Below are positions 27,738-43,756 of a stretch of DNA of 64,000 bases, piece after piece. Every line of letters starts with the position of its first letter. Positions within the stretch are counted from its first letter, which is position 1. This stretch comes from Paenibacillus graminis (GTDB lineage: Bacteria > Bacillota > Bacilli > Paenibacillales > Paenibacillaceae), in assembly GCF_000758705.1 (NCBI RefSeq), contig NZ_CP009287.1:3720001-3784000 (forward strand), given 5' to 3'. Under the pieces are notes generated by a model. The model did no database searches, was not told the origin of the DNA, and was given only the letters and a program-made list of their open reading frames with translations. A program made the translations under genes and the position numbers.

Positions 27738-29228
27738 TTACTTCTGCGTAATATCGCTGAATGTTCCGACATAACGGATATCTACCCCTGTCTCATCCTT
27801 GACGGCACTGATATTCAAGAGCTGCAGATACTCCTCACCATTCTTCCTTCTGTTCCAAATCTCTCCCTGCCAAACACCCTTTGCTCTGATCTCGCTCCAC
27901 ATGCTGCGGTAGAAATCCGGGGATTGCCTGCCTGACTTCAATACGTTTGGCTGTTTGCCTAGCACTTCCGCTTCTGTGAAGCCGGTAAGCCTCGTAAATG
28001 CAGGATTGACACTCTTAATGACACCCGCCGCATCCGTTACCAGAATCCCCTGGGCTGTTGAGTTGAATACTTCGGAAGTTAGTGCCAAGCGGTCATGATA
28101 ATAGAGCCATATCACAAGAACAAGACTGGCTAGAGCCACCTGCGAAAGCAGCATGAACCCGATCGAATATTGGCCTGTGACCGAGAAGATCAATGAGAGC
28201 ATGATCGGCGGGAAGAAGCCGCCAAGCCCGCCCATCATAGAGACAATTCCGTTGGCAATCCCTGCCTGCTTGTTGAAATAAAACGGAACTAATTTGAAAA
28301 TCACTCCATTGCCTATCCCGGCACTTACAGCAATTGCCAGGCACCCGACCGTGTAAAGACCTATGGACGGCAGAAAAGCCAGGAGTATGGCGGCGACAGT
28401 ATAGATGCTGAAGGTCCCGATCAGCAGAATCAATGGCTGGAATTTGTCACCAAGCCAGCCGCCGACGGGCCGGAAAAAGGTGGCAACGGCAATAAAACCG
28501 GCTGTGCGCATGCCTGCATCTACCTTCTCCAGTCCGAAATTAGAAACCAGGAAGTTAGGCAAATAAATCGTGAATGCGACGAACGATCCGAATGTAATGA
28601 AATAGAAGAGTGAGAACAGCCATAGCTTCTCATTTTTAACAACGCCCTTAATTTGTTCTATAATCGGTGTTCTTACCTTCGGTTCATGACGGTCTCCGAA
28701 AAAGAAATTCAGGACAATAAAGACCAGCAGAAGAATCAGATACAGCTTCACCGCCGTTGCCCAGCCGAAACGCGCAGCGATGATCGGGGCAGTGAATGTT
28801 GTGAGAGCTGTGCCCAGATTCCCGACGCCATAGATCCCGTTAACAAACCCATGCTTTTCTTTCGGAAAATACTTGGGTAATGAAGTAACCCCTACCGAAA
28901 AAACAGCTCCGCCGATACCAAGAAACAAACCGCCGATAATCAGGTCTGTATACGTGGACGCTTCACTAATATAGAATACCGGAAACAGCAGCAGCACGAA
29001 GCTGACGAGAAAGATGATACGCGCCCCAAAAATATTCGCATAATAGCCAATCGGTATACGCAGTATGGAACCGAGTACTACGGGAATCGCCGTAACCATT
29101 GCCAGTTTTCCGGCCGGTATCGGAATATCCTCGGAAATAAAAGGCATCAGAGAGGAAATGATAACCCATACCATGAAGCCAACAATCAAGTTCAATGTTT
29201 GTAACGGCAATTGCAGTTTTTTAATCAT
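27738..29228 (-). CDS. narK: nitrate/nitrite transporter NarK fused to a C-terminal PAS domain
   Basis: Membrane transporter of 496 residues. The ATG at 29228 is favoured because AAAGGTGA is correctly spaced for it. Residues 1-380 form about 12 helices of the MFS nitrate/nitrite porter family, with [21 protein letters not shown] (nitrate signature region) and the second Gly-rich motif [17 protein letters not shown] complete PAS domain follows the last helix (about 385-495): [57 protein letters not shown] and GTFSDITQK. That last phrase usually leads into an output domain, but here the protein stops. NarK is normally about 390-400 residues. The PAS may sense redox or a ligand and modulate transport. 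Its promoter carries two NreC-like boxes. Confidence 0.93.
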
Positions 29229-29281
29229 ATAACTCACCTTTTCCGCCCATTTTTTGTCTGCTGAATGTCTAATTCACTTCC

Positions 29282-29353
29282 TGTCCTTATTGTATCTGCC
29301 CTTGCTCTGCCTGAGATATAGGGGAGTACCCTTTCCCTTAGAGGGGAATCCCT
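29282..29353 (-). promoter_or_regulatory. narK promoter with two NreC-like boxes
   Basis: AGGG-GAAT-CCCT (29342-29353) and GGG-AGTA-CCC (29322-29331) fit the staphylococcal NreC pattern TAGGG-N4-CCCTA; their centres are 21 bases apart. TACAAT (minus strand, 29289-29294) is a likely -10, placing the centres near -44.5 and -65.5. No good -35 is seen, as expected for activator-dependent promoters. Confidence 0.65.
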
Positions 29354-29361
29354 GAAAACAA

Positions 29362-29403
29362 GAAAAAAACGGCTTCCCCGTCCTTATATGGACAGTGAAG
29401 CCG
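29362..29403 (-). terminator. rho-independent terminator of nar-nre operon
   Basis: CGGCTTC (29370-29376) pairs with GAAGCCG (29397-29403), extended by GTCC/GGAC, and on the minus strand runs into TTTTTTT. It ends the narGHJI-nreABC-hemerythrin operon nine bases beyond its last stop. Confidence 0.9.
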
Positions 29404-29411
29404 CTTTGCAG

Positions 29412-29945
29412 TTATTGGGTGATAAGGGTATTCATCCTGGAATACAGCCGCCCTGCATCCGGTTCGCTCAGCTGACTTTCCGCCATTGGAAAAATGACAG
29501 CCTCTTCTTTTACAAAATGCACGGTTAAAACTTCGAAAGCCTCTCCTGCATCTCTTACTGCGGAAGCAATTTTCTGTTGGGACATAAGCTCAATATCACC
29601 TTCCGTATGATGCAGAAAATGTCCGAGGTATCCGTCAATCTCGGCATGTTCCTGCTGGATCCCTACCAGCGGCCCTTGTTCAAAACCGATATAGGTTCCC
29701 AGCAGCGGGAAAAAGTGCGCTTCCTCTTTTTGCGTATGTTTATCCAGCGGAACCTTGAAATCAAGAATAAGCCTGCGCAGCTCCTTGACCTTCCTCCTGC
29801 ACTCCTCCAAACTGAGCTGTTCATCCTGTTCGAAGGAGAGTACAATGGCATGCCACTCTCCCATCAGGAATGACAAATAGCGGTGCTCGTTCTCAAGAAT
29901 GCGCATGGCCGGTGAAGCAAAACGCAGTCCGGAAGGATTCGGCAT
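29412..29945 (-). CDS. hemerythrin-domain protein, end of nar-nre operon
   Basis: 177-residue HHE-type protein. Likely di-iron ligands appear in ILENEHRYLSFL, LDKHTQKEEAHFFPLL, GIQQEHAEID and VHFVKEEAVIFPMAE, arranged on four helices. Related proteins bind O2 or NO, or help repair iron centres damaged by NO (YtfE/ScdA). TGGAGG precedes the ATG. It is the last gene of the nitrate reductase operon, 19 bases after nreC, so it is made when nitrate respiration yields NO. A second hemerythrin gene is at 38996. Gas binding or storage versus Fe-S repair cannot be decided here. Confidence 0.85.
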   Translation of the reverse strand: MPNPSGLRFASPAMRILENEHRYLSFLMGEWHAIVLSFEQDEQLSLEECRRKVKELRRLILDFKVPLDKHTQKEEAHFFPLLGTYIGFEQGPLVGIQQEHAEIDGYLGHFLHHTEGDIELMSQQKIASAVRDAGEAFEVLTVHFVKEEAVIFPMAESQLSEPDAGRLYSRMNTLITQ

Positions 29946-29964
29946 GATGTACCTCCATTCAGCG

Positions 29965-30612
29965 CTAGAAATCCAGCAGCTTTTTTTTCAAGGCATATTC
30001 GACCAGCTCCGGCCGGCTCTTCAGGTTTAATTTTTCCATGATTTTGGATTTATGAGCTTCTACAGTCTTCACGGAGATGAACAGTCTTTCCGCGATCTCT
30101 TTGTTACCGTATCCCTTGGCGATTAGGGGTAAGATTTCCAGCTCCCGCTTGGAGAGCAGTTCAAACAAATCCTCTGCAGAGGCAGTTTTGTCCTTTTTGA
30201 TAAACTCACGTACCAGCGAGGTTGCCATCTTGGGATGAATATAGGTGCCTCCCTCATAGATTGTGCGGATGGCGAGCAGCAGCTCCTCGTCGGGAGCACT
30301 TTTCAGGACATAACCGGATGCTCCGTTCTTCAGGACATGGAACAGATATTCTTCATCATCATGCATGGTCAGGATCAATATTTTGGTATCGGGATAATCC
30401 TCTTTGATTTTACCTGTGGCGATCAGTCCGCTTTCTCCAGGCGGCATGCTAAGATCCATGATCAGGATATCCGGTCTCCGTTTCGCTACCATAGCATATG
30501 CCTCTATACCGTCTGCCGCAGCCCCTATGACTTCGATGTCGTCCTGAAAATTCAGAATCATGGAAAAGCCGCTGCGCACCATGGCGTGGTCGTCTGCGAT
30601 AACGATCTTCAT
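29965..30612 (-). CDS. nreC: response regulator NreC
   Basis: NarL/FixJ-type response regulator of 215 residues. Start set at 30612 ([17 protein letters not shown]), as in the family. Receiver domain: IADDH acidic pair, phospho-acceptor in [10 protein letters not shown], and VLKSA with the conserved Lys. The C-terminal LuxR-type helix-turn-helix reads [20 protein letters not shown] and [19 protein letters not shown]. In Staphylococcus NreC, phosphorylated by NreB without oxygen, activates narG, narK/narT and nir promoters at TAGGG-N4-CCCTA sites. Such sites occur before narG, narK and a hemerythrin gene here. Confidence 0.94.
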
Positions 30613-30619
30613 CCGGGAA

Positions 30620-31690
30620 TCATTCCTTTCCATTTCCGTCTGCAACAGGAACTTGAATGATGATTCTGGTTCCCATTCCCGTTTCCGTCTTTATACTGAA
30701 GCTGCCTCCTACCAATTCTGCACGCTCCTGCATGCCGTAGATGCCCAGACCGGTCCCGCTCGGCTCATCTCCCAGGCTGAATCCAACACCCTCATCTTCA
30801 ATAGTGAGCTGCAGCATCCGGTCCCGCTCGGTAAGCTTTACTTTCACCAGATCTACCTGAGCGTACTTCAGGGCATTGAGCACCGCTTCCTGACAGACCC
30901 GGTAAATCACCGTTTCAATTTCACTTCCGTAGCGTTTCTCTGAAAGGTCGGATTCGAATTCTATCATAAGCCCGTAGATTTGCTCCATCCGCTTAAAGTG
31001 CGAGCGAAAAGCAGCCTCCAGACCAAAATCATCGAGAGCAGCAGGACGAAGCTCCACAGAGAGATTGCGGATGTCACTTAAGAGCCTTGTCATGGATACT
31101 TCCGTTTGCTTCACCTTTTTGAGCAGCTCTTCATCTCTGGTCATATATTTAAGCACCCGCAGATCGACTACAGCACTCATAAGCTCCTGGGCAACGCTGT
31201 CGTGCAGCTCCCGGGAGATCCGTTTCCGTTCGTTCTCCTGGGCTTCGATAACATGCTTCATCATTTTATTCTGATAAAATTTCTCCTGCGTCTTAAACTG
31301 CCTGGTGAGATCCCTCAGCATAAGCACCCGTATTCCATTCTCTGAATCGATGGTATGAAAGCTGGCTGCAAAAGGGATAATCCCTTTGTATTTGGTCTCA
31401 AGATAGACCTGATAGGAGGTGAAGTCCTCCGATTCCGGCACATGAAAAAAGCAATTGAGACAGGTGCGCAGCTCCAGGTCGCTGGTATACCCTCTGCATG
31501 TACTGCAAAGGGCAAGGGAATTCCCTTGCTCCAGCTGCTTCAGAAAGTCGCTGTCGACAATATAGGCGGCTGCCGGATTCATCGCCAGTGTCCTTCCTTC
31601 GCTGTCAAAAAAGAAAATAGCCTCCGTACTGTTCTCGAACAACTTCAGCATCAGCGTATTTAATGAATCCATCCCGGCTCGCAGCTTCAA
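30620..31690 (-). CDS. nreB: oxygen-sensing histidine kinase NreB
   Basis: Cytoplasmic kinase of 356 residues; no membrane helix. The N-terminal PAS domain holds Cys62, Cys65, Cys77 and Cys80 (CSTC and CLNC), spaced C-x2-C-x11-C-x2-C exactly as the oxygen-labile 4Fe-4S site of staphylococcal NreB. The HisKA_3 box is [13 protein letters not shown] (His163), followed by an HATPase domain with [14 protein letters not shown] and IEDEGVGFS. It starts with TTG four bases inside nreA; the first ATG, six codons on, has no ribosome site. It should autophosphorylate when oxygen is scarce and pass phosphate to NreC, with NreA adding nitrate control. Confidence 0.94.
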
Positions 31691-32145
31691 CTCAGCAACA
31701 GTTCCTTCCCGTTCAAGTCTCCGATTCCTTGGCGTGCCGTATTTTGCAGCTCCTGCAGCATCGTTTCGTTCACCTGCCGGTCTCCTCTAAATCCGCCGAG
31801 AAGGACCCCTGCCACGCGGGCGTCATTCCACAGCGGCACCGCCCCGATACTCTTTAGCTTCTCTGAATTGATAATCGGATAACTAAACAGCATTTCCTGC
31901 TTCACCTGTTCTTGTACAGAGTAGAGTAAAAACGGCTTTCCGGTTTTGAATACGATTCCCGCTATGCCTCTTCCGGACTGCAGCACAATCCGCTTATACC
32001 GGGAATTCAAGTTGCCGGAGGCGTATTTCCATCGGATCACATAGTCATATTCCGCAGGGTCGGCAAGTGCCAATGACATGAAATCATACCCTAGGGCGTG
32101 CCGGATTTGGTCAAGCTCCAGCTGGTAATCGACCTGGTTTTTCAT
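31687..32145 (-). CDS. nreA: nitrate receptor NreA (GAF domain)
   Basis: 152-residue single GAF-domain protein. In Staphylococcus carnosus NreA binds nitrate and, without it, inhibits NreB, so that nar genes respond to both oxygen and nitrate. Typical stretches here are LGYDFMSLALADP, RGIAGIVFKTGKPFL and IGAVPLWNDARVAGVLLGGF. Its gene lies 48 bases after narI and overlaps nreB by four bases, the same nreABC order as in staphylococci, but here attached to the 3' end of narGHJI. Confidence 0.92.
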   Translation of the reverse strand: MKNQVDYQLELDQIRHALGYDFMSLALADPAEYDYVIRWKYASGNLNSRYKRIVLQSGRGIAGIVFKTGKPFLLYSVQEQVKQEMLFSYPIINSEKLKSIGAVPLWNDARVAGVLLGGFRGDRQVNETMLQELQNTARQGIGDLNGKELLLS

Positions 32146-32193
32146 CGTTTCCTCTCCTATTGAACAGGGAAAGAAGTTTGGGCTTACTTTCCT

Positions 32194-32880
32194 TTAATTC
32201 GATTTATGTCTTCTGTATAGAATATAACTTCTTCCCACATAATTCAACGGAACACTCCATACATGAACGAGCCGGGTGAACGGCCAAAACGCAAAGATGG
32301 CAAAGCCGAACAGGATGTGGATTTTAAAGGAAAGCGGCACATCCTTCATAAGCGACAGATCGGGGCTGAACATAAACAAGCCGCGGAACCATATAGAGAT
32401 CGTCTCCCGGTAATCAAATTCGGGCTGTACTGCATTCGTAACAAGAGTGGAGTACATACCCATAAACACGATGAACAATAGCAGGGAATTGACAATCATA
32501 TCGGAGGCGCTGCTAAGACGGCGGACATTCTTCATCGTAAACCGCCGTGAGGTGAGAATCAGCATCCCGGCAAGGGTTGCCATTCCGAATATCCCCCCGA
32601 TATATACAGCGCCGATATGGTACAAATGATCGTTTACACCTATTGCCTCCATCCATGACTTCGGGACGGCCAGACCGCCGATATGTCCGAAGATAACCGG
32701 AATAATCCCCAGGTGAAAGAGAATACTTCCATATTTCAGCTGCTTTTTCTCAATGAATTCGCTGGATTTGGCCGTCCAGTTAAACTGGTCTCTCCGGTAG
32801 CGGTAAATATGCCCGACGATAAAAACGGCGAGGCAGATGTATGGAAATATGACCCATAAAAATTGATCGAACATTTTCAT
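32194..32880 (-). CDS. narI: respiratory nitrate reductase, cytochrome b (gamma) subunit
   Basis: Membrane subunit of 228 residues with five hydrophobic helices that oxidises menaquinol and passes electrons through two b hemes to NarH. Start at 32880 (MKMFDQFLWVIFPYICLAVF), overlapping the narJ stop by four bases. Heme-ligand histidines are visible in FIVGHIYRYR, LFHLGIIPVIFGHIGGL, FKIHILFGFAIF and FTRLVHVWSVPLNYVGR. Length and motif order are standard for NarI. Confidence 0.95.
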   Translation of the reverse strand: MKMFDQFLWVIFPYICLAVFIVGHIYRYRRDQFNWTAKSSEFIEKKQLKYGSILFHLGIIPVIFGHIGGLAVPKSWMEAIGVNDHLYHIGAVYIGGIFGMATLAGMLILTSRRFTMKNVRRLSSASDMIVNSLLLFIVFMGMYSTLVTNAVQPEFDYRETISIWFRGLFMFSPDLSLMKDVPLSFKIHILFGFAIFAFWPFTRLVHVWSVPLNYVGRSYILYRRHKSN

Positions 32881-33443
32881 TGACTGGTTGCCTCCTGTTC
32901 GATGCAAGCTTTGAGTGTTTCCCGCAGTCCTTTAACCAGGTGGAAATACGGACTTTCATGTTTGTCCAGCGCCTTAAGCAAATGATACGTGCCATCTTCA
33001 AGAATCGCCGTCAGCATCCGGAAGTTCTCAGCCGCAGCCGGATCGTTCAGCCATTCCGCAGCATACAGGAATTCACACATGAGCGGGAGGTAATCCGGCA
33101 GCTCGCCTTCAGGCATTTCAAGGCCGTACATTTCATACATTATTTTCAGTTTGGCCAGGATTTGTCCGCGCTCCTTGGCATCCTCAAACTTAAAATAGGT
33201 CATATAAAGGGCGCAGTCCCGCTGAAAATCAAAGGTCGCGGCATAGTTCTCCTGACTCTCATCCAAACTGAAGTTTTGCATGAGCGACCAATAAGCATGC
33301 ACATGCGTGTAAGCCGGATGTCCGGCTTCGAACGCCTCTTCCAGAAAGGCCGGATGATAATCAAGCTTTTCCGGATACATCAGCTGCAGGGCGAAATATC
33401 CGAAGGATGATTTGTAATTATGGAGCCTGCTTAGATCAATCAC
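32877..33443 (-). CDS. narJ: nitrate reductase assembly chaperone NarJ
   Basis: 188-residue redox enzyme maturation protein (NarJ/DMSO reductase chaperone family), all helical; it binds apo-NarG and guides molybdenum cofactor insertion but is not part of the mature enzyme. The start is GTG at 33441-33443 with GGAGGG upstream, inside the last codons of narH (8-base overlap). Characteristic region: LSRLHNYKSSFGYFALQLMYPE near the start and GLEMPEGELPDYLPLMCEFL in the middle. Confidence 0.93.
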   Translation of the reverse strand: MIDLSRLHNYKSSFGYFALQLMYPEKLDYHPAFLEEAFEAGHPAYTHVHAYWSLMQNFSLDESQENYAATFDFQRDCALYMTYFKFEDAKERGQILAKLKIMYEMYGLEMPEGELPDYLPLMCEFLYAAEWLNDPAAAENFRMLTAILEDGTYHLLKALDKHESPYFHLVKGLRETLKACIEQEATSQ

Positions 33444-35013
33444 GCCAGATCCCTCCGTAGAAATTCTCTTCGTACATCTCTTTTGCGGTCTTCGTGTCTC
33501 CGCCGGCAGAGCTTGCCGGTCCGCAGCCATCGCATCCGGAGCCGAAGCCTGAACCCATATCCCCCATCCGGTTGCCGTATCCGGCTGAGCCTTGTGCGCG
33601 GTAAGGATTCATGGTCTGTTCCTTATGCGAGGTCGGAATCACGAAACGGTCCTCATATTTGGCAATGGCCAGCAGCCGGTACATCTGCTCTGTCTGGTGT
33701 GCTGTCATGCCAACCCGATCAAGCCGGGACAGATCAAACGGTTGATCTGCTGATTTGGCACGCATATAGGAACGCATCATCGCCATCCGCTGCAGGGCCT
33801 CTTTTACAGTCTGCGTATCGCCTGCGGTCAGCATATTGGCCAAATACTGAACCGGTGTCCGCATTTCCTCAATAGCCGGGAAAATCATGTCCGGGTTTTT
33901 CAGGGAATCCTTGCCTTCAAAATAGTTCATAATCGGGCTCAGCGGCGGCACATACCATACCATAGGCAGCGTCCGGTATTCCGGATGCAGCGGGAACGCC
34001 AGCTTATGCTCAATCGCAAGCTTGTAAACCGGTGAATTCTGTGCCGCTTCCAGCCAGTCTTCCGAAATGCCGTCTTTTCTGGCCTGGGCGATGACTTCAG
34101 GATCATGGGGATTCATAAATAAATCACACTGTGCTTTATAGAGATCTTTTTCATCCGGTGTTGAAGCGGCATCAAGCACCTTGTCTGCGTCATACAGCAG
34201 TACACCGAGATACCGGATGCGTCCTGTACAAGTCTCGGAGCAGACCGTTGGCAGACCAGCTTCCACACGCGGGAAACAGAAGGTGCACTTTTCCGCTTTG
34301 TTGGTTTGCCAGTTGAAGTAGACTTTTTTGTAAGGGCAGCCCGTCATGCAGTATCTCCAGCCCCGGCAAGCCTCCTGGTCTACGAGGACAATGCCGTCCT
34401 CCTCCCGTTTGTACATGGCACCTGATGGACAGGAAGCCACACAGCTGGGATTCAGGCAGTGTTCACAGAGACGGGGCAGATACATCATAAACGACTGCTC
34501 GAAGTTGAATTTGATTTCCTCTTCGATCTTCTGGATGTTCGGATCAAGGGGTCCCGTGACGTGTGCGCCGGCAAGATCATCCTCCCAGTTTGGACCCCAT
34601 TCCAGATCCATTTTCTCTCCGGTTACCGCCGAATGAGCGCGTGCGACCGGTGAATGTTTTTGTTCCCCTGCCTCGGTTAAATGCTCATAATTATAAGTCC
34701 ACGGCTCGTAATAATCCTTCATTTCCGGCATGTCGGGGTTATAAAAAATCTTCCCGAGGGCTACCTTGGACAGCTTGTTGCCGGACTTCAGCTCAAGCTT
34801 GCCTTTGCGGAGCTGCCAGCCGCCTTTATAGAGCTCCTGGTCTTCCCAGCGTTTCGGATATCCGATGCCGGGTTTCGTTTCCACGTTGTTGAACCACATG
34901 TATTCCGCGCCTTTGCGGTTCGTCCACGTTGTTTTGCAGGTAACACTGCAGGTATGACAGCCTATGCACTTATCCAGATTCATCACCATTGCCACTTGAG
35001 CTTTAATCTTCAA
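33436..35013 (-). CDS. narH: respiratory nitrate reductase, iron-sulfur (beta) subunit
   Basis: 525-residue electron-transfer subunit. Start is TTG at 35011-35013, within the end of narG (11-base overlap), with AAGGAGGT correctly spaced. Four cluster motifs are visible: CIGCHTCSVTC, CEHCLNPSCVASC, CRGWRYCMTGC (Trp in place of one Cys, as in the 3Fe-4S cluster of NarH) and CTFCFPRVEAGLPTVCSETC. The C-terminus carries a Gly-rich, Cys-containing tail (GSGCDGCGPASS) that is not part of the core family and might be a local addition. Transfers electrons from NarI hemes to NarG. Confidence 0.96.
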   Translation of the reverse strand: MKIKAQVAMVMNLDKCIGCHTCSVTCKTTWTNRKGAEYMWFNNVETKPGIGYPKRWEDQELYKGGWQLRKGKLELKSGNKLSKVALGKIFYNPDMPEMKDYYEPWTYNYEHLTEAGEQKHSPVARAHSAVTGEKMDLEWGPNWEDDLAGAHVTGPLDPNIQKIEEEIKFNFEQSFMMYLPRLCEHCLNPSCVASCPSGAMYKREEDGIVLVDQEACRGWRYCMTGCPYKKVYFNWQTNKAEKCTFCFPRVEAGLPTVCSETCTGRIRYLGVLLYDADKVLDAASTPDEKDLYKAQCDLFMNPHDPEVIAQARKDGISEDWLEAAQNSPVYKLAIEHKLAFPLHPEYRTLPMVWYVPPLSPIMNYFEGKDSLKNPDMIFPAIEEMRTPVQYLANMLTAGDTQTVKEALQRMAMMRSYMRAKSADQPFDLSRLDRVGMTAHQTEQMYRLLAIAKYEDRFVIPTSHKEQTMNPYRAQGSAGYGNRMGDMGSGFGSGCDGCGPASSAGGDTKTAKEMYEENFYGGIWRD

Positions 35014-38000
35014 GCCAGTTGACCTCCTTCATTAATCGCACGGCTACGTATACATCACGCTGGTTGCCGATTGGACCGTAGTAGTTGAAACCATAGCTGA
35101 GCTGTGCGTAACCGCCGACCATCTGGGTAGGCTTCAGATGGATCCGGGTAGGTGCGTTATGACTGCCTCCGCGAGTATCTGTAATCTCTGAACCAGGCAC
35201 TTGGATATGCTTGTCTTGCGCGTGGTACATAAACATGGTGCCTCTTGGCATCCGGTGGCTGACGACAGCGCGGGCCGTGACTACGCCGTTGCGGTTATAG
35301 ACCTCCAGCCAAGCATTATCAGAAATGCCATGCTGCTCCGCGTCCTCGTTGTTGATCCACACGGTAGGACCGCCGCGGAACAGTGTCAGCATATGCTGGT
35401 TATCCTGGTAAGTGGAGTGGATATTCCACTTGCCGTGCGGAGTTAAATACCGCAGCACTAGCGCATCCTGCCCGCCTTTCACTTCCTTGTCGCGCGGTCC
35501 GAATACCATGGGCGGCAAGGTTGGCTTGTAGACCGGCAGCGCCTCGCCAAACTGCTGGAAGATCTCGTGGTCGATGTAGAAATGCTGCCTTCCCGTCAAG
35601 GTCCGGAACGGGACCAGCCGTTCAATATTGGTGGTAAACGGCGAATAACGGCGGCCTTGTTTATTGGAACCGCTGAACACGGGAGTAGGGATCACTTCCC
35701 GCGGCTGTGCAGTGATGCTCTGGAACGTAATTTTCTCTGCCGCCCGGTCCGCCGAGATATCTCTCAGCACAACACCAGAATCCTTTTCCGCCTGCTCGTA
35801 AGCCTTCTGCGACACGCGTCCGTTGGTTGCTGAGGACAGATGGAGTATGGTATCGGCCACTTGCCGGGCGGTTTGGATTTTGGGAAGACCGTTTTTGATC
35901 GATTCATCAAAAAAGACGCCGTTGAGCCGCTTGAGCTCTTCGTATTCTTCAGCCACCGAGAAGCTGATGCCATGCGCACCTGCTTTGCCGACAATCAGAT
36001 TGGGTCCAAGCGAGATGTATTTATCGTGGATTTTGGTATAATCCCGCTCAACAATGCTAAGGTTCGGCATCGTTTTGCCGGGAACAGCTTCCACTTCCCC
36101 TTTGGCCCAGTCTTTGACCAGCCCCATCGGCTGGGAGATCTCACTGATCGAATCATGCGCCAGCGGCGATGCGACCAGATCTTTATAGACTCCCGGCAGC
36201 TCCGAATTCGCCATTTCCGAGAAAACCTCCGACAGCTGGCGGTAGATATCCCAATCCGAACGGGATTCCCACAGCGGATTCACCGCCGGATTAAACGGAT
36301 GAACGAATGGATGCATATCTGTGGAGGACAGATCCGTCTTTTCATACCAGGTAGCAGCCGGAAGTACGATGTCTGCGTACAGCGGAGTGGTCGTCATCCG
36401 GAAATCCAGCGCGACCATCAGGTCGAGCTTGCCTTCCACATCCTCCCGCCAGACGATTTCTTCGGGTTTCTGCTCTTCATTCGGCCGGGCAAGGAGCCCA
36501 TCGGATGCGCCAAGCAGATGCTTCATGAAATATTCCTGCCCTTTGGCAGAGCTGGAAATCAGATTGGAGCGCCAAATAAACAGCGAGCGCGGAAAGTTCT
36601 CGGGTGCTCCAGGATCTTCTACAGCAAAACGCGTCTTCCGTGATTTGATCTCTTCCAGCGTATGGGCAATGATTTCCGCATTGGACTTCTTGCCCTGCTG
36701 CGCAGCTTCTTCCGCGAACAGGAGACTGTTCTTGTTGAACTGCGGGAAGGAAGGCAGCCAGCCGAGTCTTGCGGCAAGCACATTGTAGTCAGCGGGGTGC
36801 TGGTAAGCTACCTCCCCTGCCGTCGGCGACTTCAGCGAATCGGTACCACTCTCCTCATAGCGCCACTGTTCGGTCGCGAAGTAGAAGAATGACGTGGCAT
36901 TCTGCTGCCGTGCCGGCCCTTGCCAGTCCTTCGCGAAGGCGATGGTGGACCAGCCTTCAATAGGGCGGCATTTCTCCTGCCCGACATAATGCGCCCAGCC
37001 GCCGCCGTTGACCCCCTGGGATGCCGTCAGTACAACAAGGTTCAGAATCGAGCGGTAGATGGTATCGCTATTGAACCAGTGATTAATTCCAGCCCCCATG
37101 ATAATCATGGAGCGGCCGCCGGTATCGAGTGAATTCTGGGCAAATTCACGGGCAATCTGGATCACTACACTGGATTTCACGCCCGTAATCTTCTCTTGCC
37201 AGGCAGGGGAATAATGAGACGCGCTGTCGTCATAATCCTTGGCATTCCAAGGGCTCTCTGTTCTGGCAATGCCGTATTGGCTCAGCATCAAATCATACAC
37301 GGTGGCGGCGTATCGTTCTGTCCCGTCGGCCAGCCGTATGGTCATCGCCGGGATGACACGCTTAAACGTTCCGTTCCCCGCTTGATCAAAGTAAGGGAAG
37401 ACGATTTCTTCCCACTGCCCGCCGTGGCCTTCTACCGAAAGTGCCGGATCAATCTTCGTCCCGTCTTCCTGTTCGAGAATAAGGTTCCATTTCTTATCCG
37501 TTTCCCAGCGCTGCCCCATCGTTCCGTTAGGGACAACCAGCTCTCCGGATACCGTGTCATAAATCACCGGTTTCCAGTCTGCATGCTGGGAAGTGTCACC
37601 AAGATCGCTTGCCCGCAGGAAGCGGCCGCCCTTTAAGCTGGACTCATGCGGGTCCAGCAGGATGATAAACGGCATGTCCGTAAACTGCTTGGCATAATTA
37701 ATGAACATGGATTCCTGCCGTTCATTGTAGAACTCGTTCAGGATTACATGAGTCATCGCCTGAGCCAACGCGGCATCCGTTCCGGGATTCGGGGCGAGCC
37801 AGTTGTCCGCGAATTTGACATTTTCGGCCAAATCCGGGGCCACTGACACCACTTTGGTTCCTTTATAGCGCACTTCGGTCATAAAGTGGGCGTCCGGTGT
37901 ACGGGTAAGCGGCACATTGGAGCCCCACATCATCAAATAGCCGGCGTTATACCAGTCGGAGGATTCGGGAACGTCCGTCTGCTCGCCCCAGATCTGCGGA

Positions 38001-38677
38001 GAGGCTGGAGGCAGATCCGCGTACCAGTCGTAAAAGCTGAGCATTTGCCCGCCAAGCAGCGAGATGAACCGCGCACCCGAAGCATAGCTGACCATGGACA
38101 TGGCCGGAATCGGAGTGAAGCCTGCAATCCGGTCTGGCCCATACTTGCGGATCGTATAGATCAGCTGGGCCGCGATCAGACGAAGCGCATCCTCCCAGGC
38201 TACACGGATATGGCCGCCTTTGCCGCGGGCTTTTTTGTAGGAATCCGCTTTCGCCGGGTCTTCCACGATGCTTGCCCATGCATCCACCGGATGGTCATGC
38301 TCAAGTAGTGCAGCCTTCCACAGCCGCCACAGCTTCCCTCTCATATAGGGATATTTCACCCTAAGCGGGCTGTATTCATACCAGGAAAAGGTGGCCCCTC
38401 TGGGACAGCCTCTGGGTTCAAACTCCGGCATATCGGGACCGCAGGACGGATAGTCAATCTGCTGATTCTCCCAGGTGATAATCCCGTTCTTCACAAAAAC
38501 CTTCCAGCTGCAGGAGCCCGTACAATTGACTCCGTGTGTAGTGCGGACTACTTTATCATGAGACCAGCGCTGGCGGTACATGTCTTCCCAATCCCTGTTC
38601 TTTTCCTCCAGAATGGACCAGTTCCCGGAATAGCTTTCGACCGGTTTAAAAAAGTTGAGACCGTATTTTTTCTTCAT
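35003..38677 (-). CDS. narG: respiratory nitrate reductase, molybdenum catalytic (alpha) subunit
   Basis: 1224-residue cytoplasmic catalytic subunit that reduces nitrate to nitrite at a bis-MGD molybdenum site. N-terminal FS0 cluster region: THGVNCTGSCSWKVFVKNGI (His plus three Cys), then PSCGPDMPEFEPRGCPRGA. Cofactor-binding region includes YLMMWGSNVPLTRTPDAHF and the Asp ligand environment near WYNAGYLMM. No twin-arginine signal, so the active site faces the cytoplasm. Length is as in B. subtilis and E. coli NarG. AAAGGAG precedes the ATG. First gene of narGHJI-nreABC-hemerythrin; the promoter has two NreC-like boxes. Confidence 0.97.
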   Translation of the reverse strand: MKKKYGLNFFKPVESYSGNWSILEEKNRDWEDMYRQRWSHDKVVRTTHGVNCTGSCSWKVFVKNGIITWENQQIDYPSCGPDMPEFEPRGCPRGATFSWYEYSPLRVKYPYMRGKLWRLWKAALLEHDHPVDAWASIVEDPAKADSYKKARGKGGHIRVAWEDALRLIAAQLIYTIRKYGPDRIAGFTPIPAMSMVSYASGARFISLLGGQMLSFYDWYADLPPASPQIWGEQTDVPESSDWYNAGYLMMWGSNVPLTRTPDAHFMTEVRYKGTKVVSVAPDLAENVKFADNWLAPNPGTDAALAQAMTHVILNEFYNERQESMFINYAKQFTDMPFIILLDPHESSLKGGRFLRASDLGDTSQHADWKPVIYDTVSGELVVPNGTMGQRWETDKKWNLILEQEDGTKIDPALSVEGHGGQWEEIVFPYFDQAGNGTFKRVIPAMTIRLADGTERYAATVYDLMLSQYGIARTESPWNAKDYDDSASHYSPAWQEKITGVKSSVVIQIAREFAQNSLDTGGRSMIIMGAGINHWFNSDTIYRSILNLVVLTASQGVNGGGWAHYVGQEKCRPIEGWSTIAFAKDWQGPARQQNATSFFYFATEQWRYEESGTDSLKSPTAGEVAYQHPADYNVLAARLGWLPSFPQFNKNSLLFAEEAAQQGKKSNAEIIAHTLEEIKSRKTRFAVEDPGAPENFPRSLFIWRSNLISSSAKGQEYFMKHLLGASDGLLARPNEEQKPEEIVWREDVEGKLDLMVALDFRMTTTPLYADIVLPAATWYEKTDLSSTDMHPFVHPFNPAVNPLWESRSDWDIYRQLSEVFSEMANSELPGVYKDLVASPLAHDSISEISQPMGLVKDWAKGEVEAVPGKTMPNLSIVERDYTKIHDKYISLGPNLIVGKAGAHGISFSVAEEYEELKRLNGVFFDESIKNGLPKIQTARQVADTILHLSSATNGRVSQKAYEQAEKDSGVVLRDISADRAAEKITFQSITAQPREVIPTPVFSGSNKQGRRYSPFTTNIERLVPFRTLTGRQHFYIDHEIFQQFGEALPVYKPTLPPMVFGPRDKEVKGGQDALVLRYLTPHGKWNIHSTYQDNQHMLTLFRGGPTVWINNEDAEQHGISDNAWLEVYNRNGVVTARAVVSHRMPRGTMFMYHAQDKHIQVPGSEITDTRGGSHNAPTRIHLKPTQMVGGYAQLSYGFNYYGPIGNQRDVYVAVRLMKEVNWLED

Positions 38678-38741
38678 TGCTTACGAACACTCCTTTGCAG
38701 AATGAAGGACATGGAAGAGTCACACTCACTTTTCATTCGAA

Positions 38742-38812
38742 TAATTTCATTATGGAGGTCCCGGGCATGAGTTCCCATTAGGGAATATCCTATAGTCCCG
38801 CGGGAAATCCCT
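38742..38812 (-). promoter_or_regulatory. narG promoter with two NreC-like boxes
   Basis: TAGGG-AATA-TCCTA (38779-38792) and CGGG-AAAT-CCCT (38801-38812) match the NreC pattern with one mismatch each; centres are 21 bases apart, as at narK. CATAAT on the minus strand (38749-38754) is a likely -10 giving box centres at about -43.5 and -64.5. Confidence 0.68.
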
Positions 38813-38827
38813 TGATTCCGCAAAAAG

Positions 38828-38862
38828 CAAAAAGCCCGCCTCTTCAAGAGGTGAGCTTTTTG
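38828..38862. terminator. bidirectional stem-loop between divergent promoters
   Basis: CAAAAAGC (38828-38835) pairs with GCTTTTTG (38855-38862) around a CCTCTT/AAGAGG inner stem; both strands end in five T. It sits between two divergent promoters where no gene ends, so it may insulate them or stop antisense transcription. Confidence 0.7.
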
Positions 38863-38899
38863 TATGTTAACAGGGTGATATAAATATCGGCTCAGCAGT

Positions 38900-38970
38900 T
38901 AGGGAGTTCCCTCTTTTTGTCCAGGAGATGTCCTAACCGGAATTTCCACAGCTATTCTATATGCTATACT
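38900..38970 (+). promoter_or_regulatory. hemerythrin gene promoter with two NreC-like boxes
   Basis: TAGGG-AGTT-CCCTC (38900-38913) and CAGGA-GATG-TCCTA (38922-38935) fit the NreC pattern; centres are 22 bases apart. Possible -10 elements are TATATG (38958-38963) and TATACT (38965-38970), placing the nearer box at about -42 to -48. Confidence 0.58.
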
Positions 38971-38995: not shown

Positions 38996-39421
38996 ATGAC
39001 AGGACCCTCATTACGCCAACTGCATGCCCATCATGCGATTCATCAAGGCGGACTGTCCGGAGCCATCGACAAGACAGAAGAAGTGGAGAAGCTGCTGGAG
39101 ATTCGCGAATTAGAGGTTGCCAGACAAGCGGCTGATCACCTCGTGGAGTATTGGGAAACAAGAATACTCAGCCATGCGGAAGCAGAGGAAGAAGGCTTCT
39201 ACCCGGAGATGGCAGAGAATAACCCAAGTCTGCAGGGTGCTGTAACGAAGCTAACCCGTGATCATGAGCTGCTTCGCACAATCGTTACGGATATCAAAAA
39301 TATGCTTAATGAAGAAGGCCTCACTCCGGAAGTTCTTCAACAGTTTCATGCCCTTTTGGTTGTGAACGCTATTCATAGCCGGGATGAGGAAAGGCTGCTG
39401 CTGGAGGAGCCGTCACTATAA
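38996..39421 (+). CDS. hemerythrin-like HHE protein
   Basis: 141-residue four-helix HHE protein with candidate iron ligands in LRQLHAHHAIHQGG, ILSHAEAEEEGFYPEM, LTRDHELLRTIV and IHSRDEERLLLEE. GGGGAGG precedes the ATG. It shares the control region of narG in the opposite direction and has its own pair of NreC-like boxes. Its 3' end overlaps that of nsrR by 49 bases on opposite strands. Together with the operon-borne hemerythrin and Hmp, a role in NO or oxygen handling during nitrate respiration is likely; no direct evidence of ligand. Confidence 0.82.
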   Translation: MTGPSLRQLHAHHAIHQGGLSGAIDKTEEVEKLLEIRELEVARQAADHLVEYWETRILSHAEAEEEGFYPEMAENNPSLQGAVTKLTRDHELLRTIVTDIKNMLNEEGLTPEVLQQFHALLVVNAIHSRDEERLLLEEPSL

Positions 39422-39894
39422 TCGTTATCGTTACTGGATTGCCGGGTGGTATCTAATGATTCCCTCTGAAAAATAGCCTGCAGATCATGCTTATTCAGCA
39501 ATAAATCCTGTAATGTATATTCGCTGAGCACCTGCAAGTAAGCAGCCAATGCTCTGCCAAGCACTCCCTTTAATCCGCACACCGGAGAGATCGGACAGTT
39601 GTTGCCGGAAGGGTCAAAGCATTCTACAAGATGAAAATCATCTTCCATCCGGCGCACAACTTCTCCGATGTTAATCAGCTCGGGTGCCTTGGCCAGACGG
39701 ATCCCCCCTCCTCTGCCTCTTACCGTTTCAATATACCCCGCTTGCCCAAGTTCATGGGATACCTTCATCAGATGATTTTTGGATATATGATAGGCATTTG
39801 AAATATCTTGTATCGTTGACAGCTCGCCCCGCTCTTTCGTTCCGAGGTACATGAGGACCCGCAAAGAAAAATCTGTGTACATAGTAAGTCTCAT
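39373..39894 (-). CDS. nsrR: nitric-oxide-sensing Rrf2 repressor NsrR
   Basis: Rrf2-family regulator of 173 residues counted from the ATG at 39894 (MRLTMYTDFSLRVLMYL); two more ATGs lie up to four codons earlier. Helix-turn-helix region: STIQDISNAYHISKNHLMKV and wing GYIETVRGRGGGIRLAK. The Fe-S cysteines CFDPSGNNCPISPVC are spaced C-x7-C-x5-C, as in B. subtilis NsrR. NO destroys the cluster and relieves repression. The last 30 residues form an unusual Ser/Asp-rich tail (DYSDGSSSSSLSSS) whose codons overlap the 3' end of the hemerythrin gene. Divergent from hmp, its usual target, with an NsrR-type box between. Confidence 0.93.
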   Translation of the reverse strand: MRLTMYTDFSLRVLMYLGTKERGELSTIQDISNAYHISKNHLMKVSHELGQAGYIETVRGRGGGIRLAKAPELINIGEVVRRMEDDFHLVECFDPSGNNCPISPVCGLKGVLGRALAAYLQVLSEYTLQDLLLNKHDLQAIFQRESLDTTRQSSNDNDYSDGSSSSSLSSSRL

Positions 39895-39921
39895 TTGATT
39901 CATCATCCCTCAACTGCAGTA

Positions 39922-39937
39922 TGTGATCTTTGTTACA
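39922..39937. promoter_or_regulatory. Fnr/Crp-type box between nsrR and hmp
   Basis: TGTGA-TCTTTG-TTACA matches TGTGA-N6-TCACA with one mismatch. It is about 60 bases before the probable hmp start of transcription and close to the nsrR start codon, so it could activate hmp or repress nsrR. Confidence 0.5.
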
Positions 39938-39971
39938 AATGATACCATATAAATTGACGTTTTTGTTAAAG

Positions 39972-39988
39972 TGGTATTTTAAATATAT
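39972..39988 (+). promoter_or_regulatory. NsrR-type operator over hmp promoter
   Basis: TGGTATTTTAAATATAT agrees at 15 of 17 positions with the B. subtilis NsrR motif ATRTATYTTAAATATAT. A -35-like TTGACG at 39954-39959 lies just before, so bound NsrR would cover the -10 region of hmp. Confidence 0.62.
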
Positions 39989-40045
39989 CTTTTAGCCGAA
40001 AAAGAGTATATATTAAATTTGTAATAATGAGAGGAGTGAACGGTT

Positions 40046-41227
40046 ATTTTATCCAAACAAACACGCGATATCGTCAAATCCACGGCCCCTGTCTTAGCGG
40101 AACACGGCACAGCCATTACATCGGTGTTCTATCAGAATCTGTTTGCGGCCCATCCTGAACTTCTGAATGTGTTTAACCATGCCAACCAGGCCCAAGGCCG
40201 GCAGCAGGCAGCACTCGCGAATGCGGTGTATGCAGCAGCAGTTCACATTGATAATCTGGAGAATATTTTGCCGGCGGTTGTTCAGATTGCCCACAAGCAT
40301 GTCAGTCTTGGCATTAAGCCGGAGCAGTATCCGATTGTCGGTGAGTTTCTGCTGAAAGCCATCAAGGAAGTACTTGGCGATGCAGCAACGGATGACATCC
40401 TGCAGGCCTGGGAAGAAGCCTATGGTGTGATTGCCGATGCCTTTATCGGGGTTGAAGCGAATATGTACAAGGCAGCCCGGGAGCAGGTGAACGGCTGGAA
40501 CTTCTTCAAACCGTTTACGATTGTCCGCAAGGTGCAGGAAAGCGGCAGCATTACATCCTTCTATCTGAAACCAGCAGACGGTTCCGGCGTACCGGCGTTC
40601 AAGCCGGGCCAATATGTCTCCGTGCGTGTTCTGATTCCAGGTGAACAATACACCATGATCCGCCAGTACAGCCTGTCCCAGGCGCCAAAGCCGGATGAGT
40701 TCCGCATCTCCGTGAAGCGGGAAGCCGACAATGATCCGAACGGTGTCGTCTCTGTTTACCTTCACAAACAAGTGAACGAAGGCGATACTGTCGAAGTAAG
40801 TGCACCTGCCGGTGAATTTCTGCTGGATGCTGCCAAAACCACACCGGTCGCTTTTATCTCAGGCGGTGTAGGAATCACGCCGATGATGAGCATGCTCGAA
40901 ACGGTGGCTGTATCCACACCGGACCGCCCTACCGTTTTCCTGCACGCTGCCCGTAATGAATCGCTTGCCGCTTTTGGTGAGGATATCCAAAAACATGCTT
41001 TGAACATGAGCAACATTCAATATAAAACCTATTACTCGGGCGGCCCCGATGGTCAAATCACCCGTGAAGCCCTAGAAGCGTATGTTGATCCTACAGGTGA
41101 TGCCTATGTGTGCGGCCCTGTCCCCTTCATGGAAGCCATGATCCGGGAACTGCTGGCGATAGGGATGCAGGAAGAACAAATTCATTATGAATTTTTTGGT
41201 CCGGCCCTGCAATTAGAACAGGCATAG
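40046..41227 (+). CDS. hmp: flavohemoglobin, nitric oxide dioxygenase (ATT start)
   Basis: 393-residue enzyme that oxidises NO to nitrate with O2 and NAD(P)H. Globin domain first: with the start at 40046 the heme-pocket Tyr falls at residue 29 (VFYQNLF), with the E-helix Gln and the proximal His in IAHKHVSLGIKPEQYPIVGE. Then the FAD domain (IRQYSLSQAP, with RxYS) and the NAD domain (ISGGVGITPMMSML, AYVCGPVPFM). An in-frame TGA lies nine bases before the ATT, and no ATG, GTG or TTG occurs between it and conserved residues; AGAGGAGTGA is well spaced for ATT. The next usual start, GTG 40124, would remove the first 26 residues. Either ATT initiates, as in infC, or the start codon has mutated. Confidence 0.9.
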   Translation: MLSKQTRDIVKSTAPVLAEHGTAITSVFYQNLFAAHPELLNVFNHANQAQGRQQAALANAVYAAAVHIDNLENILPAVVQIAHKHVSLGIKPEQYPIVGEFLLKAIKEVLGDAATDDILQAWEEAYGVIADAFIGVEANMYKAAREQVNGWNFFKPFTIVRKVQESGSITSFYLKPADGSGVPAFKPGQYVSVRVLIPGEQYTMIRQYSLSQAPKPDEFRISVKREADNDPNGVVSVYLHKQVNEGDTVEVSAPAGEFLLDAAKTTPVAFISGGVGITPMMSMLETVAVSTPDRPTVFLHAARNESLAAFGEDIQKHALNMSNIQYKTYYSGGPDGQITREALEAYVDPTGDAYVCGPVPFMEAMIRELLAIGMQEEQIHYEFFGPALQLEQA

Positions 41228-41240
41228 TTAACCCATTATA

Positions 41241-41284
41241 CCAAACGGGTACACCGTCCTTTGCCGGACGATGTACCCGTTTGG
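41241..41284 (+). terminator. 19-bp stem-loop after hmp
   Basis: CCAAACGGGTACACCGTCC (41241-41259) pairs with 41266-41284 with one mismatch around TTTGCC. The following TTAGGTTTATGG is only partly U-rich. It closely resembles the stem at 7230-7267, so it may be a member of a repeated hairpin family used as terminator. Confidence 0.65.
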
Positions 41285-41322
41285 TTAGGTTTATGGTGCC
41301 TGGGTGCCTTGGAGTTACCCTT

Positions 41323-41375
41323 GCCGGGTGTATCTAAGCTCCTCCCCAGTCCCACCGAGCCTACATACACCCGGC
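41323..41375. repeat. inverted repeat with long loop
   Basis: GCCGGGTGTAT (41323-41333) is the exact inverse of ATACACCCGGC (41365-41375), with 31 bases between. Function unknown; it may form a stem past hmp. Confidence 0.45.
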
Positions 41376-41386
41376 GGAAAACTCAA

Positions 41387-41564
41387 GTGGAATAAGTGAA
41401 CTTAAATCCTCCACATCCCGCCTCCCCGCGAGCATTAGTTGGAAAAAGTAGATCTAATCCGACCGATACTCAACCAGAACGCTGAATTCGCTTGAATTAA
41501 GTATACTTTTCCCCACTATCCCCCATTAGAAAGCTTATGTTTACATTTAAGTATACTAATTCCA
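41387..41564. repeat. four degenerate palindromic motifs at about 52-bp period
   Basis: Motifs of the form TGGAAnAAGTnnACTTAnTCC recur with core centres near 41398, 41450, 41503 and 41553 (spacings 52, 53, 50): for example AAGTGAACTT, AAGTAGATCT, AAGTATACTT, AAGTATACTA. This fills the 372-base non-coding gap between hmp and the Crp/Fnr gene. No coding frame is convincing here. Confidence 0.5.
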
Positions 41565-41599
41565 CTTTACTTCAAGGGCAGTCTTTTACTGTTCACGGT

Positions 41600-42307
41600 T
41601 TAGTCCATGTATTTCTCCAAGGAGGGCCGGTTCCTTATAACCAACCGTTTGTTGCCGATCAGTTCGATCAGCCCCAAGTCTTCAAAGATGGCAAATTTCC
41701 GGCTGATGGTTTCCCGGGTGACGCCTGCGTAATTAGCCAGCTCTTCACGGGACAGCGGGAGATCGATATGAATACGGCCGCCGCGCATTTTTCCATAAAT
41801 ATCGCTTAGCTCCAGAATCATGTAAGCAATACGGATTTCCGGGTCCTTGGTTGCCAGACTTTGCGCCAGATTTTCAGTATGGGCCAGTCTTTTGGTAACC
41901 GTCTTTAGCAGCTTGAAGGCGATGTCCGGATTTTCCAGCATGATCTGCTCCATATCCGCTCTGGTCAGCATACAGATGCTGGTGTCTTTCAATGCATAAG
42001 CACTAAAGTTGCTGAGTTCATCGCTGTTAAAGATGCTCAGTTCACCAAAAAAATCACCTGCGGTTAAAATGTGCAGGATTTGCTCCTTCCCCTGCGGCGT
42101 CATTTTGGACAATTTAACTTGCCCCTGCTGAATAATGAACAAGGTATCGGTCGGCTGCTCTTCCAGAATCAGCGGCTGTCCCTTGGCGTATTTCCGGTGG
42201 ATAATCATGGTGCTGATCCGGGAGAGGTCCGCACCGGACAACGAAGCAAAGATCGGCACCTTACGGGTACACGGCTCTGCGGCATTTTGACAGGAATGTT
42301 CCGGCAT
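41600..42307 (-). CDS. Crp/Fnr family regulator with three cysteines
   Basis: 235-residue regulator: N-terminal cyclic-nucleotide-like beta-roll (about 20-130), dimer helix, and a C-terminal winged helix with SREELANYAGVTRETISRKF, whose E-x-x-S-R matches Fnr-type recognition helices. Cys6 and Cys13 precede VPIFASL, and Cys112 lies in the beta-roll (SICMLTR), close to where E. coli FNR has its fourth ligand Cys. Such a set could hold an oxygen-sensitive Fe-S cluster with a non-Cys ligand, or form a redox disulfide as in FLP proteins. AAGGAG precedes the ATG. It ends the flavodiiron operon, 25 bases after rubredoxin. Two TGTGA-type boxes in the window are candidate targets. Confidence 0.88.
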   Translation of the reverse strand: MPEHSCQNAAEPCTRKVPIFASLSGADLSRISTMIIHRKYAKGQPLILEEQPTDTLFIIQQGQVKLSKMTPQGKEQILHILTAGDFFGELSIFNSDELSNFSAYALKDTSICMLTRADMEQIMLENPDIAFKLLKTVTKRLAHTENLAQSLATKDPEIRIAYMILELSDIYGKMRGGRIHIDLPLSREELANYAGVTRETISRKFAIFEDLGLIELIGNKRLVIRNRPSLEKYMD

Positions 42308-42332
42308 CTCGGGTCTCTCCTTCTCTTATCCT

Positions 42333-42494
42333 CTATGAAATGGGTGAAAAATGGCTGGTGTCTTCTCCGCAGACCGGGCAGACCCAATCCTCCGGCAAAT
42401 CTTCAAAAGCAGTGCCCGGTGCCACATCCTCATCGGGGTCGCCAACCGCAGGATCATAAATATAACCGCAGGGTTCACATACATATTTGTTCAT
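42333..42494 (-). CDS. rubredoxin
   Basis: 53-residue one-iron electron carrier. Start at 42494 ([15 protein letters not shown]), behind AGGAGATG; two further ATGs upstream are worse placed. Iron ligands CEPC near the start and CPVC near the end, with the conserved [21 protein letters not shown] between. It should shuttle electrons from the reductase encoded just upstream to the flavodiiron protein. Gaps to neighbours are 23 and 25 bases. Confidence 0.96.
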
Positions 42495-42517
42495 CAGGTT
42501 CATCTCCTGTTTCAAAG

Positions 42518-43741: not shown

Positions 43742-43756
43742 GAACGTTCGCCCCCC

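What the first reader, a model, noticed from the sequence alone, without database searches (positions are those of the whole stretch)
29282..38970. Paired NreC boxes with the same 21-22 bp spacing at three promoters
Sites of the form AGGG-N4-CCCT occur as pairs before narK (centres 29326.5 and 29347.5), narG (38785.5 and 38806.5) and the hemerythrin gene (38906.5 and 38928.5). Spacings are 21, 21 and 22 bases, about two helical turns, and predicted -10 elements put the nearer box at about -42 to -48 in all three. nreABC itself is part of the narG operon, giving positive feedback. The paired, phase-locked layout is more regular than the single GGG-N4-CCC palindrome I recall for staphylococci, and adds a hemerythrin to the regulon.
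Basis: partly seen in the sequence, partly recalled or inferred. Interest (0 to 1): 0.72.

Follow-up and report, generated by a model that had tools for sequence, protein, structure and literature searches.

The report
Paired NreC boxes at nitrate promoters
Three promoters of a soil bacterium's nitrate-breathing gene cluster each carry two copies of the same short DNA signal, two DNA turns apart; most related clusters that sit beside the matching oxygen/nitrate control genes keep this layout, so it is most likely a double docking site for that control protein.

Summary
All three box pairs lie at the stated coordinates, centre spacings 21, 21 and 22 bp; two of the six boxes match AGGG-N4-CCCT perfectly. 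A matrix learned from relatives ranks them 1-3 in the window, and two sequence models find no other convincing pair in the 7.17-Mb genome. In 80 other loci the 21/22-bp spacing dominates before narG, narK and the hemerythrin gene, with a -10 element at a fixed distance. In 61 genomes of the same genus group, model R1 hits 35 of 37 genomes with an NreC orthologue, each just upstream of narG, and 0 of 24 without one. Model R2 hits 2 of those 24, at an aroC-linked site. narK loses the pair where it closely follows the upstream gene (1 of 24, versus 52 of 55). Best reading: a conserved two-site NreC activator promoter, similar to DevR promoters, with the hemerythrin as a likely target. The contrast with staphylococci fails: genomes I take for Staphylococcus have the narG pair too. 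NreC binding is inferred, not shown.

The parts
29321..29332 (-). narK proximal box (centre 29326.5, about -44.5)
   Evidence: reads AGGGTACTCCCC on the narK strand
29342..29353 (-). narK distal box (centre 29347.5, about -65.5)
   Evidence: reads AGGGATTCCCCT on the narK strand
29289..29294 (-). narK -10 element TACAAT
   Evidence: a -10-like hexamer lies at offset 30-32 from the near box in 44 of 50 narK promoters
29366..29407 (-). terminator-like hairpin with T-run between the nreABC-hemerythrin run and the narK promoter
   Evidence: (-26.5 kcal/mol, z -5.9)
38780..38791 (-). narG proximal box (centre 38785.5, about -43.5)
38801..38812 (-). narG distal box (centre 38806.5, about -64.5)
38749..38754 (-). 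narG -10 element CATAAT
   Evidence: a hexamer with at least 5 of 6 matches to TATAAT sits at exactly this offset in 42 of 50 narG promoters
38901..38912 (+). hemerythrin (hryB) distal box, perfect consensus (about -70.5)
38923..38934 (+). hryB proximal box, weaker (about -48.5)
38965..38970 (+). hryB -10 element TATACT with extended TG
   Evidence: at offset 35-36 in 16 of 16 hryB promoters
29965..30645 (-). nreC, NarL/LuxR-type response regulator (GerE domain)
30620..31690 (-). nreB, sensor histidine kinase with Cys62/65/77/80
   Evidence: the four Cys are invariant in 80 of 80 aligned copies, window included
31687..32145 (-). nreA, GAF-domain protein, best hit the nitrate sensor NreA
32194..38677 (-). 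narGHJI, respiratory nitrate reductase operon
27738..29237 (-). narK, nitrate/nitrite transporter with a C-terminal PAS domain
38996..39421 (+). hryB, single-domain hemerythrin
   Evidence: PF01814, 32.0 bits against a cut-off of 25.3
29412..29945 (-). hryA, second hemerythrin, last gene of the narGHJI-nreABC run

Best explanation
Each promoter carries two adjacent sites for phosphorylated NreC, one site per dimer, 21-22 bp apart so that both dimers sit on the same face of the DNA. The near site, centred about 43-48 bp before the transcription start, takes over the role of a -35 element next to RNA polymerase, and the far site probably stabilises it by cooperative binding. Without oxygen and with nitrate, NreB and NreA phosphorylate NreC (described for staphylococci). 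NreC then switches on narGHJI-nreABC-hryA (a self-reinforcing loop), narK and the hemerythrin gene hryB. Shown here: the sites, their spacing, the -10 placement and the co-occurrence with nreC. Inferred: binding by NreC, cooperativity, activation and feedback.
For: Spacing: with at least 14 of 16 consensus matches, 28 (21 bp) and 13 (22 bp) of 81 narG, 33 and 31 of 79 narK, and 13 and 15 of 30 hryB upstream regions have a pair, against means of 0.47, 0.22 and 0.34 for each of the 32 other spacings; shuffles gave 0.00 at 21 and 22 (divergent narG and hryB regions overlap, and a region can count at both spacings). With leave-one-genus-out matrices, 52 of 63 narG and 45 of 49 narK top pairs of 20 bits or more have d = 20-23. 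The -10 element sits at a fixed offset. Co-occurrence: model R1 hits 35 of 37 genus-group genomes with NreC at 77% identity or more, all 68-106 bp upstream of the narG match, and 0 of 24 without; one of the two misses (G237) has no NarG. Class level: 21 of 23 nre-linked narG promoters reach 17 bits, against 3 of 25 unlinked; four unlinked ones carry a perfect Fnr site instead. narK has the pair where an intergenic gap of more than 110 bp leaves room (52 of 55 against 1 of 24). NreB Cys ligands are invariant in 80 of 80.
Against: No binding or expression data. Two of 23 nre-linked class-level narG promoters stay under 17 bits (L134, L135); one unlinked promoter has a pair (L152, genome G116, where the 16.5-kb stretch shows an nreA-like remnant and no NreB or NreC). 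Of nine narG promoters near a more distant regulator (52-62%), one has a pair at 20 bits or more. Nine of the 23 nre-linked promoters also have an Fnr-like match with one mismatch, so the two types are not cleanly separate. Model R2 hits 2 of the 24 genomes without an NreC orthologue (G220, G256, E 0.008-0.010) and an extra place in G254: all three lie just upstream of aroC, so the model is not perfectly specific. In Sporosarcina 10 of 19 narG top pairs are 50-52 bp apart. Three narK promoters with a wide gap lack a pair of 17 bits (L056, L060, L079). Matrix and models were trained on relatives of the same loci, and related genomes are not independent.
Confidence: 0.87

Rival explanations
1. 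Only one box per promoter is a functional NreC site; the second is a weak auxiliary or relic site.
For: One box can be weaker: the hryB near box scores 9.3 against 16.6 bits. Many Sporosarcina narG promoters keep one perfect box, or boxes 50-52 bp apart.
Against: At least one narG promoter with a 20-23 bp pair of 20 bits or more is found in 14 of 19 genus labels, with matrices that leave the genus out. DevR shows that a weak neighbour site can matter (PMC3029386, abstract and passages).
Confidence: 0.15
2. The pairs bind another regulator encoded nearby, such as the Rrf2 or Crp/Fnr protein, not NreC.
For: Rrf2 (39373-39906) and Crp/Fnr-like (41600-42307) genes lie next to hryB.
Against: Pairs track nreC across genomes. 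A match to this Rrf2 protein turned up in only 8 of the 80 loci, while pairs are far more widespread. Four Fnr-type promoters have a perfect TGTGA-N6-TCACA and no pair. NreC is described as binding a GC-rich palindrome (PMC8139620 and PMC5694512, passages).
Confidence: 0.05
3. Chance palindromes in intergenic DNA.
For: The bare consensus with 3 mismatches occurs no more often than its reversed control genome-wide.
Against: Matrix simulations, genome-wide models, spacing statistics and conservation.
Confidence: 0.01

Closest known systems
NreABC oxygen/nitrate control of nar, nir and narT in Staphylococcus carnosus and S. aureus
   Same: Same three genes beside narGHJI, four invariant NreB cysteines, and a GC-rich palindrome before nar genes.
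   Different: The review passages read here speak of a GC-rich palindromic region or sequence. Here there are two boxes per promoter, a hemerythrin gene is a likely target, and no pair was seen around either nirB gene. The pair itself is shared with narG promoters of genomes I take for Staphylococcus.
DevR (DosR) promoters of mycobacteria
   Same: NarL-family regulator of oxygen response; strong and weak sites packed side by side, the near one at the -35 region (PMC3029386, abstract and passages).
   Different: Different organism, and box sequence not compared here; cooperative binding is shown for DevR but not for NreC.
Fnr control of narGHJI in Bacillus subtilis
   Same: Anaerobic control of the same operon (PMC8139620, passage).
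   Different: Uses TGTGA-N6-TCACA (motif recalled); four unlinked narG promoters here have it perfectly and no box pair. The window's narG, narK and hryB promoters have no match with fewer than 3 mismatches.

Membership tests
NreABC system | GAF sensor (NreA), histidine kinase (NreB) and NarL-type regulator (NreC) linked to narGHJI | tested here: met
NreABC system | Four Cys ligands of the NreB iron-sulfur cluster | tested here: met
   Cys62/65/77/80, invariant in 80 of 80 aligned copies; their role as cluster ligands is recalled
NreABC system | NreA over the curated NCBIfam cut-off | tested here: inconclusive
   NF038250 is the best hit at 148.6 bits, below the cut-off of 175
NreABC system | Phospho-NreC binds the GC-rich palindrome | not testable with these tools
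   Only co-occurrence and position
Two-site NarL-family activator promoter (DevR-like) | Two close sites, near one next to the -35 region, fixed relative to the -10 | tested here: met
Two-site NarL-family activator promoter (DevR-like) | Cooperative occupancy required for activation | not testable with these tools
   needs footprints and promoter mutants
Fnr-type nar promoter | TGTGA-N6-TCACA upstream of narG | tested here: not met
   best match has 3 mismatches for narG and hryB and 4 for narK
RIC/YtfE iron-sulfur repair protein (for hryA) | Score over the NCBIfam cut-off | tested here: not met
   26 bits against a cut-off of 204.7

The most novel reading that the evidence does not exclude
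NreC acts only as a cooperative two-dimer (tetramer-like) unit that reads a helical-phase code, two turns in most lineages and perhaps five turns in Sporosarcina. In this genome that code marks just three promoters, all inside the nar cluster, so a dedicated oxygen/nitrate sensor serves its own neighbourhood. The hemerythrin hryB is a standing member of that circuit: in 24 of 30 loci it either has its own 21/22-bp pair (16) or sits directly behind narK or moaA (8), which implies a role for this di-iron protein in nitrate respiration.
Probability: 0.35. Interest if true: 0.55.

Novelty: new member of a known kind. Interest (0 to 1): 0.45.

Why it matters
It turns a loosely described palindrome into a testable promoter grammar (two boxes, 21-22 bp, fixed distance to the -10) that should predict NreC targets across Bacillales from sequence. 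It also ties a hemerythrin of unassigned function to nitrate respiration in soil bacteria, where nitrate use bears on nitrogen loss.

Tried and rejected
Consensus-only genome scans: not specific at 3 mismatches. Extra targets in the own genome: of five loci with E between 0.2 and 1.9 (stretches), three lie inside ORFs (L122, L123, L125) and two are intergenic but match only part of the model (L124, L126); none was counted. nirB as a target: both full-length nirB loci lacked pairs in the fetched stretches, best 8.9 and 6.5 bits. A site upstream of aroC in G254 recurs at the same distance in G220 and G256, which have no NreC orthologue, so it was not counted as a target (the gene name aroC is recalled from its sequence, not from a family search). 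A window pair at 60237 (20 bp, 20.4 bits) lies inside a permease-like ORF (the name is recalled). The original staphylococcal papers are not held, so whether pairs were already noted there is open. Searches by title and listing only: NreC with palindrome and narG (2 papers), NreABC with Paenibacillus (0), NreABC with Staphylococcus (44, 20 listed), NreC with binding site and related words (18, 12 listed; 846, 12 listed), NreC regulon/box/motif phrases (1), Paenibacillus with narG and NreB (1), NreABC with hemerythrin (1). Passages were read only in PMC8139620, PMC5694512, PMC6167427, PMC3029386 and PMC7018068; none of these passages describes the pair, and the other listed papers were not opened.
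Full report
What is there. The window lies in one 7.17-Mb contig, and its NarH is 99% identical to that of Paenibacillus jilunlii. On the minus strand run narGHJI, nreA, nreB, nreC and a hemerythrin (hryA), with short gaps or overlaps (families). A terminator-like hairpin (29366-29407, -26.5 kcal/mol, z -5.9) separates this run from narK. A second hemerythrin (hryB, 38996-39421) points away from narG. Two of the six match AGGG-N4-CCCT perfectly.

Is it more than chance? The plain consensus is weak evidence: pairs with up to three mismatches occur 27 times genome-wide at each spacing, no more than the reversed control (32 and 36). I therefore learned a symmetrical matrix from box pairs upstream of narG, narK and hryB in relatives (window, L001 and L002 excluded). 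With it the three pairs rank first to third in the window (29.9, 27.3, 25.9 bits), while the best 21/22-bp pair in 300 simulated 64-kb sequences was 21.4. Two sequence-only models (d = 21 and d = 22; 55 and 34 sequences) searched against the whole genome return narG (4.6e-6), narK (3.7e-5 and 4.9e-6) and hryB (1.2e-3); outside the three promoters nothing is better than 0.2. The search scores only about 150 of 1500 first-look candidates, so weak sites could be missed.

Conservation. A NarH search gave 80 loci, the best 80 of a longer list, from the genome collection. NreC is found in 79 of them and missing from one, L068, whose narG and narK promoters have no pair (1.9 and 3.1 bits). Among 81 narG, 79 narK and 30 hryB upstream regions (window included), pairs with at least 14 of 16 consensus positions number 28, 33 and 13 at 21 bp and 13, 31 and 15 at 22 bp. 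The other 32 spacings between 12 and 45 average 0.47, 0.22 and 0.34, and shuffled regions give 0.00 at 21 and 22. A promoter can count at both spacings, and in loci where hryB is divergent from narG the two regions overlap. With matrices that leave out the genus under test and all spacings from 12 to 60 allowed, 63 of 81 narG, 49 of 79 narK and 20 of 30 hryB regions have a top pair of 20 bits or more; of these 52, 45 and 18 have d = 20-23 (for hryB this includes narG pairs in shared regions). The main departure is Sporosarcina narG, where 10 of 19 have d = 50-52.

Promoter geometry. Anchored on the near box, a -10 hexamer with at least 5 of 6 matches lies at offset 31 in 42 of 50 narG promoters, at 30-32 in 44 of 50 narK promoters and at 35-36 in 16 of 16 hryB promoters (sequences; only promoters with a 21/22-bp pair of at least 12 of 16 matches and a suitable distance to the gene were examined). 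In the window this places near boxes at about -43.5 (narG), -44.5 (narK) and -48.5 (hryB), assuming the start lies 7 bases past the hexamer. In narG the position of a -35 hexamer is filled by TGGGAA (19 of 62 pair-bearing regions) or TAGGAA (9 of 62), which could be a poor -35 or a third half-site.

Who binds? In 61 genomes of the window's genus group, 37 hold an NreC orthologue (77-100% identity), and 35 of these have an R1 hit; all 35 have one 68-106 bp upstream of the NarG match. None of the other 24 has an R1 hit. Model R2 hits 28 genomes, including two of those 24 (G220, G256, E 0.008 and 0.010) and an extra place in G254; these three sit at the same distance before aroC and are not nar promoters. 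Of the two NreC genomes without an R1 hit, G237 has nreABC but no NarG, and G240 keeps a narG near box with a decayed far box and has a 23-bp narK pair. G213 has two NarG of 59 and 55% identity without an NreC orthologue and no hit. In a class-wide sample of 200 genomes I fetched 57 narG upstream regions and sorted them by eye according to whether an NreC homologue lay near. Of 23 with NreC of 69% or more, 19 reach 20 bits and 21 reach 17. Of 9 near a 52-62% homologue, 1 reaches 20. Of 25 unlinked, 1 reaches 20 and 3 reach 17. Two of the three unlinked exceptions (L176, L177) are second narG copies in genomes that do have NreC. The third (L152, G116) has only an nreA-like remnant in the stretch looked at. 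Four unlinked promoters carry a perfect Fnr site instead (L157, L159, L161, L162); but nine of the 23 linked ones also have an Fnr-like match with a single mismatch, so some promoters may use both kinds of input.

A natural test. narK lies behind hryA or nreC. Where the gap exceeds 110 bp, 52 of 55 loci have a pair of at least 17 bits; where it is 110 bp or less, 1 of 24 does. The cut at 110 bp was chosen after seeing the data. hryB shows the same logic: in 30 loci (window included), 16 have their own 21/22 pair 45-130 bp before the start, and 8 sit 25-66 bp behind narK or moaA on the same strand with no pair of their own. In the remaining six (L004, L005, L018, L019, L027, L028) the top match has another spacing or is the divergent narG pair.

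Mechanism. All four NreB cysteines are present in 80 of 80 aligned copies, and the NreC DNA-binding helix is nearly the same from Paenibacillus to Mammaliicoccus in the eight copies shown. Reviews state that phospho-NreC binds a GC-rich palindrome before nar, nir and narT in staphylococci (PMC8139620 and PMC5694512, passages). The simplest reading is two NreC dimers side by side on one face of the DNA, the near one contacting RNA polymerase. DevR of mycobacteria offers a worked precedent with strong and weak neighbouring sites and cooperative binding (PMC3029386, abstract and passages). NreC binding, cooperativity and feedback are inferred.

What is not special. The sampled family f9 includes a contig identical in length to that of Macrococcoides caseolyticum L054, and its nine genus g12 genomes, which I take for Staphylococcus, have narG pairs 20-21 bp apart, 8 of 9 at 20 bits or more and the ninth at 19.5. 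The layout therefore looks old and shared. The original staphylococcal papers are not held, so it may already be in print there.

Verdict. A real, conserved regulatory element of a known system, refined in architecture and probably extended to a hemerythrin. Interest moderate.

Noticed in passing
27738-29237: The nitrate transporter NarK carries a C-terminal PAS domain (PF13426, 66.1 bits). The best tblastn stretch covers at least 97% of it in 64 of 78 relatives' narK but only about 73-83% in 14, including Macrococcus and Salinicoccus loci, so a transporter-sensor fusion seems common in this cluster.
   Followed up: partly
38822-38868: A stable hairpin (terminator-like on both strands, z about -6) sits between the divergent narG and hryB promoters, where no transcript would be expected to end.
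   Followed up: partly
38772-38785: TTCCCTAATGGGAA: a third half-site or -35-like element directly after the narG near box; its end is TGGGAA or TAGGAA in 28 of 62 pair-bearing narG regions.
   Followed up: partly
39373-45034: Next to the nar cluster lie an Rrf2 regulator, a flavohemoprotein, a Crp/Fnr-type regulator, a NirB/NorW-like reductase and a flavorubredoxin-like protein, which looks like a nitric oxide defence group.
   Followed up: no
L224:3034-3067, L227:3057-3090, L228:3050-3083: A pair-like element AGGGAATCCTCTTTGACAAGAAAGGGATATCCCT lies just upstream of aroC in G254; close versions sit at the same distance in G220 and G256, which have no NreC orthologue, and a 3-mismatch relative occurs in the own genome at 4639524, neighbours not checked. 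Unexplained.
   Followed up: partly
31515-31526: A perfect AGGGAATTCCCT lies inside the nreB coding sequence (19.7 bits, highest single box in the window); probably coincidental.
   Followed up: no
L024-L074 (Sporosarcina loci): Ten of 19 Sporosarcina narG promoters have their two best boxes 50-52 bp apart, close to five helical turns, instead of two.
   Followed up: no
G237 (L225): A genome of the genus group keeps nreABC although no NarG was found in it; what nreABC controls there is unknown.
   Followed up: no
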